A stretch of DNA of 51,617 bases from Parcubacteria group bacterium CG1_02_58_44. Its GTDB lineage: Bacteria; Patescibacteriota; Patescibacteriia; SG8-24. A program made the position numbers and the translations under genes. The stretch's first letter is position 1. The number at the start of each line of letters is the position of its first letter. Under the pieces are notes generated by a model. The model did no database searches. It had not been told where the DNA came from and saw only the letters and a list, made by a program, of their open reading frames with translations. Positions 11,812-45,537 of the stretch are shown here, in pieces. The stretch covers positions 1 to 51,617 of the forward strand of contig MNWN01000018.1 of assembly GCA_001872545.1 (NCBI GenBank), in the 5' to 3' direction.

Positions 11812-11940
11812 TGGTAAGACGGCCTTGGGCCAACGAAGACGTCACGTTTCGACGAACGATCTCGAAGGCGAGAAAGGGAAAGTCTACCGAAAGGTCGGTT
11901 AATTAAAACGAAACGACAACAAGTCGAAACGTACACACAT
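11812..11940 (+). other. Long structured 5' leader of the zinc-ribbon gene
   Basis: The leader contains several short hairpins: CTCG-AAGG-CGAG near 11860, and ACC-GAAA-GGT with a GNRA loop near 11895. It then has an A-rich unpaired stretch before the ATG. I do not recognise a riboswitch class. It is either a stabilising leader for a highly expressed small protein or an undescribed regulatory RNA. Confidence 0.3.
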
Positions 11941-12124
11941 GGACGACTTCCAGATGGGTGGAGCCCGCGCTCCTCGTCAGATGTTCGATGTCTCCTCTCT
12001 CGGCCTCAAGTGCGCCGAGTGCGGCAACGACATCAAGGAGCTCCCGTTCGAGCCCAACCAGGATCGCCCGGTCTACTGCCGCGATTGCAACCGCAACCGC
12101 CGGCCAGCTCGACCGCGATTCTAA
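11941..12124 (+). CDS. Small CxxC...CxxC zinc-ribbon protein
   Basis: The 61-residue basic protein has two CxxC knuckles, CAEC (residues 25-28) and CRDC (47-50), separated by 18 residues. The intervening PFEPNQDRPVYC is the signature of the 'CxxC-x17-CxxC' family (usual form PFKPDPDRPVYC), which is abundant in CPR genomes. Here the gap is one residue longer than the family name. The N-terminal MDDFQMGGARAPRQMFDVS and C-terminal RNRRPARPRF are probably disordered and could bind nucleic acid. Zinc binding is likely, and the function is unknown. Strong promoter, long leader and strong terminator suggest high expression. Confidence 0.85.
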
Positions 12125-12129
12125 GACAT

Positions 12130-12169
12130 AAACCAAAAACCCCACCTTCGGGTGGGGTTTTTGGTTTAT
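12130..12169. terminator. Strong bidirectional terminator
   Basis: AACCAAAAACCCCACC and GGTGGGGTTTTTGGTT form a stem with a UUCG loop, the most stable tetraloop. It serves the zinc-ribbon gene and the convergent ATP-grasp gene. Confidence 0.9.
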
Positions 12170-12196
12170 GCTGTTTACTCTTTCGAATGTGGGCGG

Positions 12197-21576: not shown

Positions 21577-24500
21577 ATGATGAATCCAGTTCCGAACGCC
21601 ACCTCTACCGCTGACCGCCGTACGGAGGAGAGTCGGCGCGTGGTCTCCGCTATATTGGAACAGATCCCCGGGCTGCAGAAGGTAAAACAAGTCCGGCAGC
21701 GGGACGGCTCAGCGGTAGACTTTAGGCCGGAACAGGTTGGAATGGCGCTGTCGGCGGCTCTGACTCGGGTCGGCATTGACGACCAGATGGCGCTGGCCAA
21801 ATGCACTCACCAGTCGCTGATGCGGCTGGAGCGGGAGTTCGACGAACGTACCATTCCGACTACCGACGACATTAGTCGGATCGTGGGTACGGTTTTGATA
21901 GACAACAATCTTTCCTTCGCGGCCAAGAAGTACTTCGCGGCCATGCTGCCGGAACGCAGCCGTCAGCCACAGAGGCTGAGCGCCGGGTTGAAGTTCAGTC
22001 GGCTGTTCACCAGGGCAGAGGTCCATCCCTACGATCAGGTCGAATGGGAAAGGAGGGATGCGGTCATCAAGAACGAGAAGGGACAGACGGTTTTCGAACA
22101 GCGTGGAGTCGAGGTCCCCAAATCTTGGAGCCAGTCCGCGACCAATATCGTGACGTCGAAGTATTTCCGCGGCGAGATCGGCAAGCCGGAACGGGAATAT
22201 TCGGTCCGGCAGATGGTCGATCGGGTGGCTCAGACCATCGCCCATTGGGGGCGTCAGGACGGATATTTTGCGTCCGAGGAGGATGCGACCGTTTTCGAGG
22301 CGGAGCTGACGTCCATACTCGTCAACCAGCGAGCGGCCTTCAACAGTCCGGTCTGGTTTAACGTCGGCGTCAGTCCGCGGCCGCAGTGCTCGGCCTGCTT
22401 CATCAACTCGGTACGTGACGACATGCGCTCGATCCTTAACTTGGCCGTGACCGAAGGAATGCTCTTCAAGTACGGCTCCGGCACCGGCACCAACCTGTCG
22501 TCGCTGCGTTCCTCCAAGGAGCTGCTGGCCAACTCGTCCGGCAAGTCGTCCGGTCCGGTCTCGTTCATGAAGGGCTTTGACGCCTTCGCCGGCGTCATCA
22601 AGTCCGGCGGCAAGACCCGGCGGGCGGCCAAGATGGTCATTTTGAACGTCGACCATCCGGACATCGAGGATTTCGTCGAATGCAAGATCAGGGAGGAGCG
22701 CAAGGCCAAGCAGCTGATCAAGGCCGGGTACGACGCCTCGATGGACGGCGACGCCTACAGCTCCGTATTCTTCCAGAACGCCAACAACAGCGTGCGGGTC
22801 ACGGACGACTTCATGGGCGCGGTGGTTGACGGTCACGAGTGGACCACCAGGGCGGTGACTACCGGACAGGTGATGGGCTCCATGCCGGCCAAGTCGTTAT
22901 TTCGCAAGATTTCGCAGGCGGCCTGGGAGTGCGGCGATCCGGGACTGCAGTTCGACTCCATGGCCAACCGCTGGAATCCGGTCCCGAATTCGGGACGAAT
23001 CAACGCTTCTAATCCATGCGTCACCGGCGACACGCTGGTGGCCACGTCTGATGGCTGGCGCCGCATCGACTCGCTGCTCGACGGACCAATGTCGACGATA
23101 GGATCCGATGGTCAGGCACACGGCACCGGACCGGCCTTCTCGACCGGAACCAAGCCGGTCTACCGGCTGACCACCAGGGCTGGCTTCGAACTCAAGCTGA
23201 CCGCCGATCATCGCGTCCTGACTTCGAACCGCGGTGACGTGCCGGCCTGCGAACTGACTAAAGATGACATGGTGCTGTTGGGGCGGCCGGGCTTCGGTTC
23301 GGCTGAACTGGACCAGAGGCTGGGTGAGTTCTTGGGGTTGCTCGTGGGCGATGGCTGCATCAGCGGCGAGCAACGGACGGCCGCATTGACGCTGTCGCCG
23401 GACGAGTCTGCCGTGGCCGAGCGGGTGCATGCCCGACTGACCGAGTATCGGCAGGAGAAGGCTGCCGATGGACGGGCGGCCCGCGAGACGGAGGTCACCA
23501 AACCCCAAGGTACTTTGCGGATCAACACCAGTGCCAAGTGCGTAACGGATGAGCTGGACCGGCTGGCCGTTCTAGACCGCGGCAGCCAAGCCAAGGAATT
23601 TATGCCGGATGTCTTCGATCTAGACGAAGGCTCGTTGGCCGCCGTGCTTCGTGGCCTGTTTACCGCCGATGGTACCGTCGCCAACTACGCAGACAAGTCG
23701 CAGTATGTAGGACTCGACAGCGTTTCGCTCGGTTTGCTGGGGCAGGTTCAGCTGCTGCTGATGGCGTTCGGAATCAAGTCGAATATCTATCGTGACCGGC
23801 GGGTCATCGGCCAGACCACGGCGCTGCTTCCTGACGGTCAGGGTGGCAGCAGGGAATACGAGGTCAGTCAGATTCACAGCCTACGCATCAGCTGCAGTTC
23901 GCGTCTGGCGTTCGAGAAGAGGATCGGTTTCGTTGCTGGGAGCGTCAAGGTCGACCGGCTGTCAGCGATGAACCGGGAGGTCGGAACTCATGAAGACCGG
24001 TTTGAGGACCAGGTCGAGTCTTTCGACTACCTAGGAGAGGAACCGGTCTACGATCTGACCGAACCGGACACTTCGCATTTTGTCGCCTCCGGCTTGGTGG
24101 TCCATAACTGCTCCGAATACATGTTCCTCGACGATTCGGCATGCAACCTGTCGTCCCTGAACCTCCTGAAGTTCGTCCGGTCCGACGGATCGTTCGATAC
24201 CGGGTCCTTCCGGCAGGCGTCCGAGGTGATGATCACGGCCATGGAGATACTGGTCGGCAACTCGTCGTATCCCACGCCGTCTATCGAGGAGAACAGCTAC
24301 GACTTTCGGGCGCTGGGCATCGGCTACGCCAACCTGGGTGCGCTGCTCATGTCGTACGGCTTGGCCTACGATTCCGACGACGGGCGTAACTTCGCCGCGG
24401 CTGTGACCGCGCTGCTGACCGCCTGCAGCTACCGGCAGTCGGCGCGCGTGGCTTCGGTCCTCGGTCCGTTCCGCTACTACCGCATGAACGAGGAGTCCTT

Positions 24501-25983
24501 CCTGCGCATCATCGGCATGCACCGCGACTATGCCCACGCCATCCGGCCGGCCGGCGTGTCCGGCGAGCTGGTCGATGAGGTAAAACGGAGTTGGGACGCC
24601 GCACTCGAGGAGGGGATGACGCACGGATTCAGGAACGCGCAGATATCGCTGCTGGCTCCGACCGGAACGATCGGCTTCCTGATGGACTGCGACACCACCG
24701 GCATCGAGCCGGACATCGCACTCGTCAAGTACAAGTGGCTGGTCGGCGGCGGCCTGATGAAGATCGTCAACGGCACCGTCAGACCGGCGTTGGTTCGGTT
24801 GGGCTACGGCGACGGACAGATCGTCGACATCATGAAGTTCCTGGACGAGAACGACACCATCGAGGGGGCGCCGCATCTCAAGGATGAGCACCTGTCGGTG
24901 TTCGACTGCGCCTTCCGACCGGCCAAGGGCCAGCGCTGCATCAATTACATGGGACACATCAGGATGATGTCCGCGGTCCAGCCGTTTCTGTCCGGCGCCA
25001 TTTCCAAGACGGTCAACCTGCCCAGCGAGGCCACTGTCGAGGACGTCGAGGACGCGTATCTCGAGGCCTGGCGGTTGGGACTCAAGTCCATTGCCGTCTA
25101 CCGCGACGGGTCCAAGGGTCAGCAGGTACTGACCACCTCGGTCGACCAGGACAGGAAAGTAAGCGGCGCCGAGGCGGCGCGCGAGCTGGCGGCGGCCAAC
25201 GAGGAGATCAACGGCCTCAGGAAGGATCTTGAGGCCGCGATGTCTAGGACCAGACTCGACCGTCGGCCCCTGCGTCGTCACTTGCCGGACGAGCGTCGGT
25301 CGGTGACGCATAAGTTCTCGATTGCCGGACATGAGGGCTACATTACGGTCGGACTGTACGACGACGGCACTCCGGGTGAGATGTTCATCCGCATGGCCAA
25401 GGGCGGTTCGGTGATCTCGGGCCTGATCGACGCCTTCGCCACTACGACCTCGATCGCCCTGCAGTACGGCGTACCCCTGAAAGTCCTGGTCAACAAGTTC
25501 GTGCATCTGAGGTTCGAACCGTCTGGCTTCACTTCCAACCCAAATATCCGTATCGCCAAGTCGATTGTCGACTACCTGTTCCGCTGGCTGGCGCTGAAGT
25601 TCCTGCCTCTCGAGGATCAGATGGCGGTTGGGGTGAACATTGACGCGCCGATCTTGGCCGAGGCCGGACGTGAGGATGTCGAGGCTTCACTTGATACGGT
25701 GATGGACGACAGCAGCGTGCTGAACGGCGATCCGGTCGTGCCGTCCGCCAAGCAGATGAACATCGACGAGGGACGGAAGGGGAGCGGGGCTGCAGGGCCG
25801 TCTTCCGACAGTCGGTCTCCGGACGCATTGGCCGACCGGTCCGAGCCGTCGTCCAACTCGCTGACCATGGGCTTCGACATCCAGTCCGACGCCCCGCCCT
25901 GCGATACCTGCGGCGCGATCATGGTCAGGAACGGGGCGTGCTATAAGTGCCTGAACTGCGGGGGAACCAGCGGCTGCAGCTAG
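21577..25983 (+). CDS. nrdJ: Class II (B12-dependent) ribonucleotide reductase with intein
   Basis: The 1468-residue precursor makes deoxynucleotides with adenosylcobalamin as radical source. An ATP-cone lies at about residues 35-125. The catalytic barrel follows, with a redox Cys in QCSACFINSV, substrate-site residues in KYGSGTGTNLSSLRSS and a later LAPTGTIGFLMDCDTTGIEPD loop. Residues 481-844 are an intein inserted in the active-site motif N-P/C-S-E; after splicing, Cys845 becomes the thiyl-radical cysteine. The C-terminal part has a TSCPD domain (HKFSIAGHEGYITVGL) and a zinc-ribbon tail with CDTC and CYKCLNC. The spliced protein would have about 1104 residues. A neighbouring adenosyltransferase gene fits the cofactor need. 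Confidence 0.95.
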   Translation: MMNPVPNATSTADRRTEESRRVVSAILEQIPGLQKVKQVRQRDGSAVDFRPEQVGMALSAALTRVGIDDQMALAKCTHQSLMRLEREFDERTIPTTDDISRIVGTVLIDNNLSFAAKKYFAAMLPERSRQPQRLSAGLKFSRLFTRAEVHPYDQVEWERRDAVIKNEKGQTVFEQRGVEVPKSWSQSATNIVTSKYFRGEIGKPEREYSVRQMVDRVAQTIAHWGRQDGYFASEEDATVFEAELTSILVNQRAAFNSPVWFNVGVSPRPQCSACFINSVRDDMRSILNLAVTEGMLFKYGSGTGTNLSSLRSSKELLANSSGKSSGPVSFMKGFDAFAGVIKSGGKTRRAAKMVILNVDHPDIEDFVECKIREERKAKQLIKAGYDASMDGDAYSSVFFQNANNSVRVTDDFMGAVVDGHEWTTRAVTTGQVMGSMPAKSLFRKISQAAWECGDPGLQFDSMANRWNPVPNSGRINASNPCVTGDTLVATSDGWRRIDSLLDGPMSTIGSDGQAHGTGPAFSTGTKPVYRLTTRAGFELKLTADHRVLTSNRGDVPACELTKDDMVLLGRPGFGSAELDQRLGEFLGLLVGDGCISGEQRTAALTLSPDESAVAERVHARLTEYRQEKAADGRAARETEVTKPQGTLRINTSAKCVTDELDRLAVLDRGSQAKEFMPDVFDLDEGSLAAVLRGLFTADGTVANYADKSQYVGLDSVSLGLLGQVQLLLMAFGIKSNIYRDRRVIGQTTALLPDGQGGSREYEVSQIHSLRISCSSRLAFEKRIGFVAGSVKVDRLSAMNREVGTHEDRFEDQVESFDYLGEEPVYDLTEPDTSHFVASGLVVHNCSEYMFLDDSACNLSSLNLLKFVRSDGSFDTGSFRQASEVMITAMEILVGNSSYPTPSIEENSYDFRALGIGYANLGALLMSYGLAYDSDDGRNFAAAVTALLTACSYRQSARVASVLGPFRYYRMNEESFLRIIGMHRDYAHAIRPAGVSGELVDEVKRSWDAALEEGMTHGFRNAQISLLAPTGTIGFLMDCDTTGIEPDIALVKYKWLVGGGLMKIVNGTVRPALVRLGYGDGQIVDIMKFLDENDTIEGAPHLKDEHLSVFDCAFRPAKGQRCINYMGHIRMMSAVQPFLSGAISKTVNLPSEATVEDVEDAYLEAWRLGLKSIAVYRDGSKGQQVLTTSVDQDRKVSGAEAARELAAANEEINGLRKDLEAAMSRTRLDRRPLRRHLPDERRSVTHKFSIAGHEGYITVGLYDDGTPGEMFIRMAKGGSVISGLIDAFATTTSIALQYGVPLKVLVNKFVHLRFEPSGFTSNPNIRIAKSIVDYLFRWLALKFLPLEDQMAVGVNIDAPILAEAGREDVEASLDTVMDDSSVLNGDPVVPSAKQMNIDEGRKGSGAAGPSSDSRSPDALADRSEPSSNSLTMGFDIQSDAPPCDTCGAIMVRNGACYKCLNCGGTSGCS
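23017..24108 (+). other. Intein with LAGLIDADG homing endonuclease inside nrdJ
   Basis: The intein spans precursor residues 481-844 (364 residues). Block A starts CVTGDTLVAT with nucleophile Cys1, and block B is KLTADHRVLTS with the TxxH motif. The two endonuclease helices are LGEFLGLLVGDGCIS and LAAVLRGLFTADGTVA, each with the acidic residue that binds metal. The C-terminal splice end is VYDLTEPDTSHF...ASGLVVHN followed by Cys+1. All splice residues (Cys1, block B His, penultimate His, Asn, Cys+1) are present, so splicing and homing are both expected to work. Confidence 0.95.
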
Positions 25984-43941: not shown

Positions 43942-43991
43942 TTAGAATTTCTGAACGCCCCCCCTCAATTGTTCACGCAGGTCTGGTGTCA

Positions 43992-44432
43992 ATGTCTATG
44001 CTGATCGTCAGGAAAGCCGGTGCCGTGGTGCTGTCCAAGAGTGATCCGTCATTGGTCGCGCTGATTTTTCGTGCGGGACACGGCGATTGGTCGTTTCCCA
44101 AGGGGCACGTCGAAGAGGGCGAGACTTCCGTCCGGGCTATGGCCAGGGAGGTCGCCGAGGAGACCGGGCTGTCTGTCCATTCGGTCGGTGTTCCGCTTCC
44201 GGCCATGGAATACGATCATCCGAGCGGCAGTCACGTGATCCTCGACATGTTTCTTGCGCAGTCCGAGGACGATACGGCACTCAGAACCGAGTTCAATGGC
44301 GATCGAGTCGTCTGGGTCGATTATGCAGAGGTCGCGGACAGACTCAGCCATGAGAATGTCAGACAATACTACTCAGGTGTCCAAGCGAGGATCAAGACGA
44401 CCATCGACGGTCTTCGAGTCGTGGAGCCGTAG
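43992..44432 (+). CDS. NUDIX hydrolase
   Basis: The 146-residue protein has the full Nudix box in GHVEEGETSVRAMAREVAEE followed by TGL, i.e. G-x5-E-x7-R-E-x2-E-E-x-G. It hydrolyses a nucleoside diphosphate linked to another group. The FPKGHVEEGE start resembles Ap4A-hydrolase-like or MutT-like members, but the substrate cannot be assigned. The frame is open from a GTG at 43986; ATG 43992 or 43998 is more likely. Confidence 0.9.
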   Translation: MSMLIVRKAGAVVLSKSDPSLVALIFRAGHGDWSFPKGHVEEGETSVRAMAREVAEETGLSVHSVGVPLPAMEYDHPSGSHVILDMFLAQSEDDTALRTEFNGDRVVWVDYAEVADRLSHENVRQYYSGVQARIKTTIDGLRVVEP

Positions 44433-44494: not shown

Positions 44495-44731
44495 GCGGGA
44501 CCACCAAGGGGTGATCCCGCTGAGTTCTGCTTGAGTGCGGCCGGACTGGCGGTCAGATGGTGCTATCGACCGTAGTTCGGCGCACACTCAGGTCCGCGGC
44601 GTTCGCACTGTCGTTGCGCTCCGTGCATTGACAGCTACGAAAAAAGAACCAAAAGTTTCCTGACTTCCATGGAGTTTTCTCCTTTCCTGGAAGGTCTTCA
44701 CGATGATAACAACTGAGGTTAGAGCTGACAA
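44495..44731 (-). ncRNA. Candidate structured small RNA unit with an 11-codon ORF
   Basis: A promoter reads leftward (TTGTCA 44731-44726, 17 bp, TATCAT 44708-44703). The start is near 44696. A terminator closes the unit (GCGGGATCACC/GGTGGTCCCGC with one mismatch, then GTTTTTATTT, 44520-44486). The transcript of about 200 nt has a Shine-Dalgarno AAAGGAG inside a GGAG-aaaa-CUCC hairpin, then ATG 44670 and an 11-codon frame (MEVRKLLVLFS). The rest forms stems such as CTGTC/GACAG, CGGTC/GACCG and GAGTG/CACTC. No gene follows on this strand before the terminator, so it is not an attenuator of a visible gene. I do not recognise the class. Confidence 0.4.
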
Positions 44732-44851
44732 GTCAACAGTATCCACTAATTGTGGATATTCTGAAATCACTTTCGAAGCATCTCATCATGAGGTTGTCCG
44801 CAGTCATGACTAGGCATGGCTTGTGGGAACTGAGCTTGTCATAATCCAGGT

Positions 44852-45537
44852 ATGTGTTTTTCCGCGACAGCCAGCTTCGTCGCCGCCGCCGGCTTGAGTG
44901 CCATGGGCGTGGTGACCCTGCGCGAGGCCAAATCGATAGACCGGATTCCGCTCGCGGCCATGCCGCTGCTTTTCGGCGCCCAGCAGGCCGTGGAGGGAAT
45001 CGTCTGGGTTTCGTCCGGCGTCCCTTGGCTGCACTCGTCGGCCGCCTTCGTCTACGTGATGTTCTCGCACGTGCTGTGGCCGTTCTACGTTCCGTTGGCG
45101 GTCGGTGCGCTCGAGCCGCCCGGCCGCAGGAGGACAGCCCTCAGGATATTCCTGCTGATCGGGTCGCTCTCAGTCTCTGGCTCCTGACCTACGTTTTGCG
45201 CGGACCTGTTACAGCGTCCTGCGCGACAGGCAGCATCATTTACCGTATGGTTCTGCCGCCCATTCCGTACGGTCTGGCCGTCTACGTGCTCGTGACCTGC
45301 TGTTTCTGCCTGATTTCCAGTCATAAGTTCATCCGCGTCCTCGGTCTGGCGCTCGTTGGTGCGCTGGCGATCTCGCTTTGGTCCTACCTGACGGCGTTCT
45401 ATTCGGTCTGGTGTTTCTTCTCGGCTCTCTTGAGCGCCGTCATCTACGTGCATTTGAGGCACGGGAAAGAGCTGTCTCGACTGGTCAGGAAGTACGAGAA
45501 TACGGCCCGCAGACGTTTTCGCAGCGGCGGACGGTGA
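44852..45537 (+). pseudogene. DUF6629-like membrane protein with a frameshift
   Basis: The first frame starts with the diagnostic MCFSATASFVAAAGLSAMG and covers about half of a multi-helix membrane protein (PLLFGAQQAVEGIVWVS). It stops at 45187. The second frame takes over near 45165-45180 (SLWLLTYVLRGPV) and continues with IPYGLAVYVLVTCCFCLISSHKF and three further helices to 45537. Joining them gives about 227 residues, the normal length of the family, so one base has been lost or gained, or misread. The function of DUF6629 is unknown. A CATAAT at 44840 would start RNA at the ATG itself. Confidence 0.65.

What the first reader, a model, noticed from the sequence alone, without database searches (positions are those of the whole stretch)
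44495..44731. Orphan 200-nt transcription unit with hidden Shine-Dalgarno and 11-codon ORF
Promoter, strong ribosome-binding site inside a GGAG-AAAA-CUCC hairpin, a mini-ORF (MEVRKLLVLFS), several nested stems and a strong terminator all lie on the minus strand, with no larger gene to control. It looks like a regulatory RNA, a leader peptide RNA acting in trans, or a small toxin-like peptide.
Basis: partly seen in the sequence, partly recalled or inferred. Interest (0 to 1): 0.6.

Follow-up and report, generated by a model that had tools for sequence, protein, structure and literature searches.

The report
Orphan structured small RNA candidate
A small symbiotic-type bacterium of the Patescibacteria carries what looks like a free-standing gene for a ~210-base folded RNA; one sister species keeps the folded part but lacks the promoter and the tiny reading frame, so it is probably an ordinary, narrowly distributed small RNA and not a peptide or toxin gene.

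Summary
In detail: on the minus strand there is a good extended -10 promoter (44731-44703, 10/12), an SD + ATG 11-codon ORF, three further hairpins and a strong terminator (44520-44495). The ~208-nt transcript folds far better than shuffles (z about -4.3 to -4.5). No Rfam family, protein family, phage, plasmid or viral contig matches it meaningfully. The host is a ~1.06-Mb Patescibacteria (Uhrbacteria-like) genome. Of 380 genomes of its class only one other, 'Ca. Uhrbacteria' RIFOXYC2_FULL_47_19 (same genus, same neighbourhood), has it. There the promoter, hidden SD and mini-ORF are missing (about 90-nt gap), while the three-hairpin body (44650-44487) is recognisable: only 45-62% identical between flanks mostly 77-95% identical, yet with a base-pairing profile more alike than in 3 x 1000 null sequences (0, 0 and 1 reach it). 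So the conserved object is the RNA fold, not the hidden-SD leader peptide. Best reading: a genus-restricted stand-alone non-coding RNA gene, possibly decaying in the sister species, where the convergent NUDIX gene is also broken. No expression data; with two sequences, covariation is thin. New member of a known kind; modest interest.

The parts
44740..44758 (.). Perfect inverted repeat TATCCAC-N5-GTGGATA just upstream of the -35 (operator-like; arms resemble DnaA boxes)
   Evidence: Exact form occurs once in the genome; core CCAC-N5-GTGG is kept in G001
44703..44731 (-). Sigma-70-type promoter TTGTCA-17-TATCAT with extended -10 (TG); start site inferred near 44697-44695
   Evidence: absent from the sister genome
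44662..44696 (-). 5' leader hairpin holding SD AAGGAG (44684-44679) in GGAG-AAAA-CUCC and covering the AUG
   Evidence: not more stable than shuffles; absent in G001
44635..44670 (-). 11-codon ORF MEVRKLLVLFS
   Evidence: sequence; not conserved in G001; chance level 1.2% of shuffles
44591..44650 (-). Hairpin H1 closed by GGUUC/GGACC, inner stem variable between species
44532..44590 (-). Hairpin H2, 23 bp in all; basal helix UGAGUGUG/CGCACUCA
   Evidence: z -5.0; basal helix kept in G001 with one compensatory U-A to C-G change
44495..44520 (-). Hairpin H3: intrinsic terminator stem-loop, followed by a U tract (44494-44485)
   Evidence: weaker but recognisable in G001 with U tract kept
43986..44432 (+). 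Convergent NUDIX hydrolase gene, intact here, a remnant in G001
44852..45537 (+). Divergent DUF6629 membrane protein gene, frameshifted near 45166 here, intact in G001

Best explanation
A stand-alone, non-coding small RNA gene restricted to one Patescibacteria (Uhrbacteria-like) genus. RNA polymerase starts about 44696 on the minus strand and stops at the 44520-44495 terminator, giving a ~208-nt RNA of a 5' leader hairpin plus three hairpins H1-H2-H3 (shown as sequence; transcription is inferred). The selected part is the H1-H2-H3 fold, whose arms have changed in sequence while the fold stayed (shown statistically for two species). It most likely acts in trans as a riboregulator, through its accessible A/U-rich stretch between leader and H1 or through the folded body as a protein-binding shape (inferred). 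The hidden SD and 11-codon ORF are probably incidental or a local addition.
For: Promoter and terminator bracket the RNA with no gene between or behind. Fold z -4.5/-4.3. Same synteny in G001. A covariance model built from the window sequence alone finds G001 at 53.4 bits, E 2e-10 over a whole genome, and nothing else in 380 genomes of the class; the sequence-only model gives 40 bits. Flanks are mostly 77-95% identical and the body 45-62%, yet base-pair-profile similarity is 139.3 against nulls 115.2 +/- 8.3, 121.9 +/- 7.6 and 117.9 +/- 7.6 (0, 0, 1 of 1000). One compensatory and one half-compensatory change in the H2 base. Not protein-coding by Pfam or tblastx.
Against: Only two sequences. 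On a plain sequence alignment no double change is seen and canonical pairs are not in excess of null. In G001 the promoter and 80-90 nt of the 5' part are missing, its fold is only z -1.2 and its terminator is weaker. The profile-similarity test was designed after seeing the two folds. No transcript data and no target identified.
Confidence: 0.5

Rival explanations
1. A non-functional or decaying stretch: a GC-rich hairpin-prone intergenic region with a chance promoter, losing what function it had (in G001 together with the NUDIX gene).
For: G001 lacks promoter and leader, has a weaker fold and a NUDIX remnant in two frames without its first half. Body diverges faster than flanks. No relatives elsewhere.
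Against: z -4.5 fold plus promoter plus terminator in register in the window; fold architecture kept beyond three nulls.
Confidence: 0.25
2. A cis element for the convergent NUDIX gene: minus-strand transcription from 44696 toward the NUDIX 3' end, insulating or dampening it by collision or by antisense read-through past 44495.
For: Faces NUDIX (stop at 44432), about 60 bp from the terminator. Promoter and NUDIX are both lost in the one relative.
Against: The strong terminator stops transcription before NUDIX; the elaborate body would be unnecessary; co-loss rests on a single relative.
Confidence: 0.13
3. A peptide gene (leader-peptide-like or small toxin-like) with translation held back by the hairpin.
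For: AAGGAG, 8 nt, ATG, 11 codons, stop; seen in 1.2% of shuffles.
Against: Start region absent in the relative; 11 residues is shorter than known membrane-acting type I toxins (own knowledge); leader hairpin not exceptional and SD only about half paired; no structural gene follows.
Confidence: 0.06
4. A divergent copy of a known housekeeping RNA (6S or SRP RNA) that this genome otherwise seems to lack.
For: RF00013, RF00169 and RF01854 find nothing in either genome; the length would fit 6S.
Against: No Rfam match at the locus even at E up to 10 apart from chance hits; three separate hairpins instead of one long bulged rod; body poorly conserved between sister species, unlike these RNAs.
Confidence: 0.03

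Closest known systems
Intergenic trans-acting bacterial sRNAs (generic class, own promoter + intrinsic terminator)
   Same: Free-standing unit of about 200 nt, strong 3' terminator hairpin with U tract, narrow distribution
   Different: No known target, no known partner protein, no expression evidence; no Rfam family matched
6S RNA (RF00013)
   Same: Similar length, own transcription unit
   Different: No model match and a three-hairpin fold instead of one bulged rod
Type I toxin / antitoxin RNAs with sequestered SD
   Same: Short ORF with SD and start codon partly in a hairpin
   Different: ORF only 11 codons, not conserved, no antisense RNA partner seen

Membership tests
Any Rfam 15 family | Score at or above gathering threshold | tested here: not met
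   Only a tRNA in the window; locus at E up to 10 gives chance hits only
Stand-alone sRNA gene | Own promoter and intrinsic terminator, no long ORF | tested here: met
   (in the window; promoter not found in G001)
Stand-alone sRNA gene | Conserved secondary structure in relatives | tested here: inconclusive
   Profile similarity beyond three nulls but only two sequences and no covariation on the plain alignment
Stand-alone sRNA gene | Discrete transcript detected | not testable with these tools
   No RNA-seq available
6S RNA | Match to RF00013 | tested here: not met
Signal recognition particle RNA | Match to RF00169 or RF01854 | tested here: not met
Leader peptide / attenuator | Regulated gene downstream on the same strand | tested here: not met
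   Terminator then antisense of NUDIX; no minus-strand gene
Small peptide or type I toxin gene | ORF conserved in relatives | tested here: not met
   Start region absent in G001
Integron attC site | Paired RYYYAAC / GTTRRRY cores at the two ends | tested here: not met
   No core in the window stretch on either strand

The most novel reading that the evidence does not exclude
An uncatalogued RNA family, confined to one Patescibacteria genus, in which hairpin arms turn over much faster than the surrounding DNA while the three-hairpin shape is kept, so that selection acts on shape and a few islands (GGUUCUUUU, CCGCGGACCUGAGYGUGCG, GCAGAWCUCARCGGGAUCACC) instead of on base-pairing to targets.
Probability: 0.25. 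Interest if true: 0.45.

Novelty: new member of a known kind. Interest (0 to 1): 0.3.

Why it matters
I found no described small RNA in this group in the papers searched, and these bacteria are mostly uncultured with ~1-Mb genomes. A free-standing regulatory RNA in such a genome would be a usable example, and the pair of loci makes a simple prediction about structure under selection. If it is only a decaying intergenic region it matters little.

Tried and rejected
Rfam at gathering and at E up to 10: nothing. DNA search in family and class: beyond G001 only short chance-level matches, those inspected lying in unrelated contexts. Synteny in other genera via the DUF6629 gene: the gene is widespread but the RNA is not beside it. 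Viral contigs, phages, plasmids: none, apart from a 43-base match at E 0.01 in a Streptomyces plasmid. A second model hit in the window at 12068-12170 (22.7 bits) was the terminator of a small CxxC-protein gene, a false positive that shows how far a one-sequence model can be trusted. Degraded protein gene: no Pfam match for the ORFs overlapping the unit. Integron attC: no cores. Replication origin: no GC-skew switch in the window. SRP/6S identity: not met. Paper searches found no described small RNA of Uhrbacteria or Patescibacteria resembling this.

Full report
What is there. The minus strand between the NUDIX gene (43986-44432, +) and the DUF6629 gene (from 44852, +) carries an extended -10 promoter (TTGTCA-17-TATCAT, 44731-44703), and an 11-bp G-C-rich terminator stem with U tract (44520-44495). 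The inferred ~208-nt RNA folds at -85 to -87 kcal/mol against a shuffled mean of about -65 to -67 (z -4.3 to -4.5). Its parts are a leader hairpin (44696-44662) with AAGGAG and AUG, then H1 (44650-44591), H2 (44590-44532) and the terminator H3. The statistical strength lies in H2 (z -5.0) and H3 (z -5.2); H1 (-0.9) and the leader (+0.4) are individually unremarkable. The mini-ORF with SD is a 1.2% event in shuffles, and the SD is only about half paired in the ensemble, so 'hidden Shine-Dalgarno' is a weak feature.

Where it occurs. The window is contig 29 of a 1.06-Mb genome. The only other holder of the locus is G001, identified by contig match (same length, 100% protein identity, same coordinates) as 'Candidatus Uhrbacteria bacterium RIFOXYC2_FULL_47_19', MGFG01000020.1. 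DNA search of 19 relatives, the 10 genomes held of the family and 380 of the class, and a covariance-model search of 380 of the class, found no third member. Phage and viral collections gave nothing, and plasmids gave only one 43-base match at E 0.01.

What the relative shows. The neighbourhood is syntenic and 40-nt bins of the flanks are mostly 77-95% identical (70-100% at the extremes). In the RNA body identity falls to 45-62%, and the stretch of about 90 nt with promoter, leader hairpin and most of the mini-ORF is absent in G001. The gap is bounded by a TGG on either side in the window, consistent with a deletion in G001, but the direction cannot be settled with two genomes. G001 has no good minus-strand promoter in its place, its terminator is weaker (-11.9 against -21.9 kcal/mol), and its NUDIX gene is a remnant lacking the first 72 codons and shifted in frame. 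The locus may therefore be decaying there.

Is the fold conserved? On a plain sequence alignment: no double changes, canonical pairs not above null. But the alignment in the variable blocks is nearly arbitrary. Comparing base-pairing profiles, which needs no sequence alignment, the two RNAs score 139.3 against 115.2 +/- 8.3 (random substitutions), 121.9 +/- 7.6 (substitutions at the observed positions) and 117.9 +/- 7.6 (variable blocks shuffled, islands kept); 0, 0 and 1 of 1000 nulls reach it, and in the third null the score does not depend on folding energy (correlation 0.09). In both, GGUUC/GGACC closes H1, a long H2 follows, then H3. In the H2 base, anchored by conserved islands, one U-A pair became C-G, one U-G became U-A and one A-U was lost (read by eye from the pair lists). 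A covariance model of the window RNA scores G001 at 53.4 bits, a sequence-only model 40 bits; the two scales are not strictly comparable, and a false positive reached 23 bits. I take this as moderate evidence that the hairpin body was under selection for shape in both lineages at least until recently. The profile test was devised after both folds had been seen, and rests on two sequences.

How it most likely works. Transcription unit: shown as sequence only. Structured, non-coding body: supported. The cis alternative (convergent transcription toward NUDIX) gains a little from the joint loss in G001 but is weakened by the strong terminator. The peptide and leader readings fail on conservation and on the lack of a downstream gene.

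Verdict. A real feature, best described as a candidate orphan small RNA of narrow distribution: new as a sequence, ordinary as a kind.

Noticed in passing
window 44852-45537: The DUF6629 membrane protein gene is split by a frameshift near 45166 (apparently one base); the sister genome has it intact (228 aa). Real mutation or assembly error not resolved.
   Followed up: partly
L003 6204-6412: NUDIX gene is a remnant in the sister genome: residues 73-141 only, in two frames, the first half missing; intact in the window.
   Followed up: yes
window 44740-44758: Perfect inverted repeat TATCCAC-N5-GTGGATA, unique in the genome, between the divergent promoters; arms resemble DnaA boxes and CCAC-N5-GTGG is kept in the sister species.
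   Followed up: partly
genomes G000 and G001: Neither small nor large bacterial SRP RNA models nor the 6S model find a match in either genome, although the same SRP searches ring in 10-11 and the 6S search in 8 of 14 control genomes.
   Followed up: partly
window 11940-12125: Short plus-strand ORF with CxxC...CxxC (zinc-ribbon-like) followed by a roughly 20-bp, probably bidirectional terminator hairpin (about 12128-12170).
   Followed up: no
window 21577-25983: 1468-aa ribonucleotide-reductase-like ORF appears to hold an intein (segment starting CVTGDTLVATSDGW and ending ...HFVASGLVVHN before the sequence resumes with CSEYMFLD).
   Followed up: no
window 44507-44519 (minus strand): The terminator's 5' arm GGGATCACCCCTT resembles the 3' end of 16S rRNA (GGATCACCTCCTT, from memory); the GGATCACC part is kept in the sister species. 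Probably coincidence.
   Followed up: no
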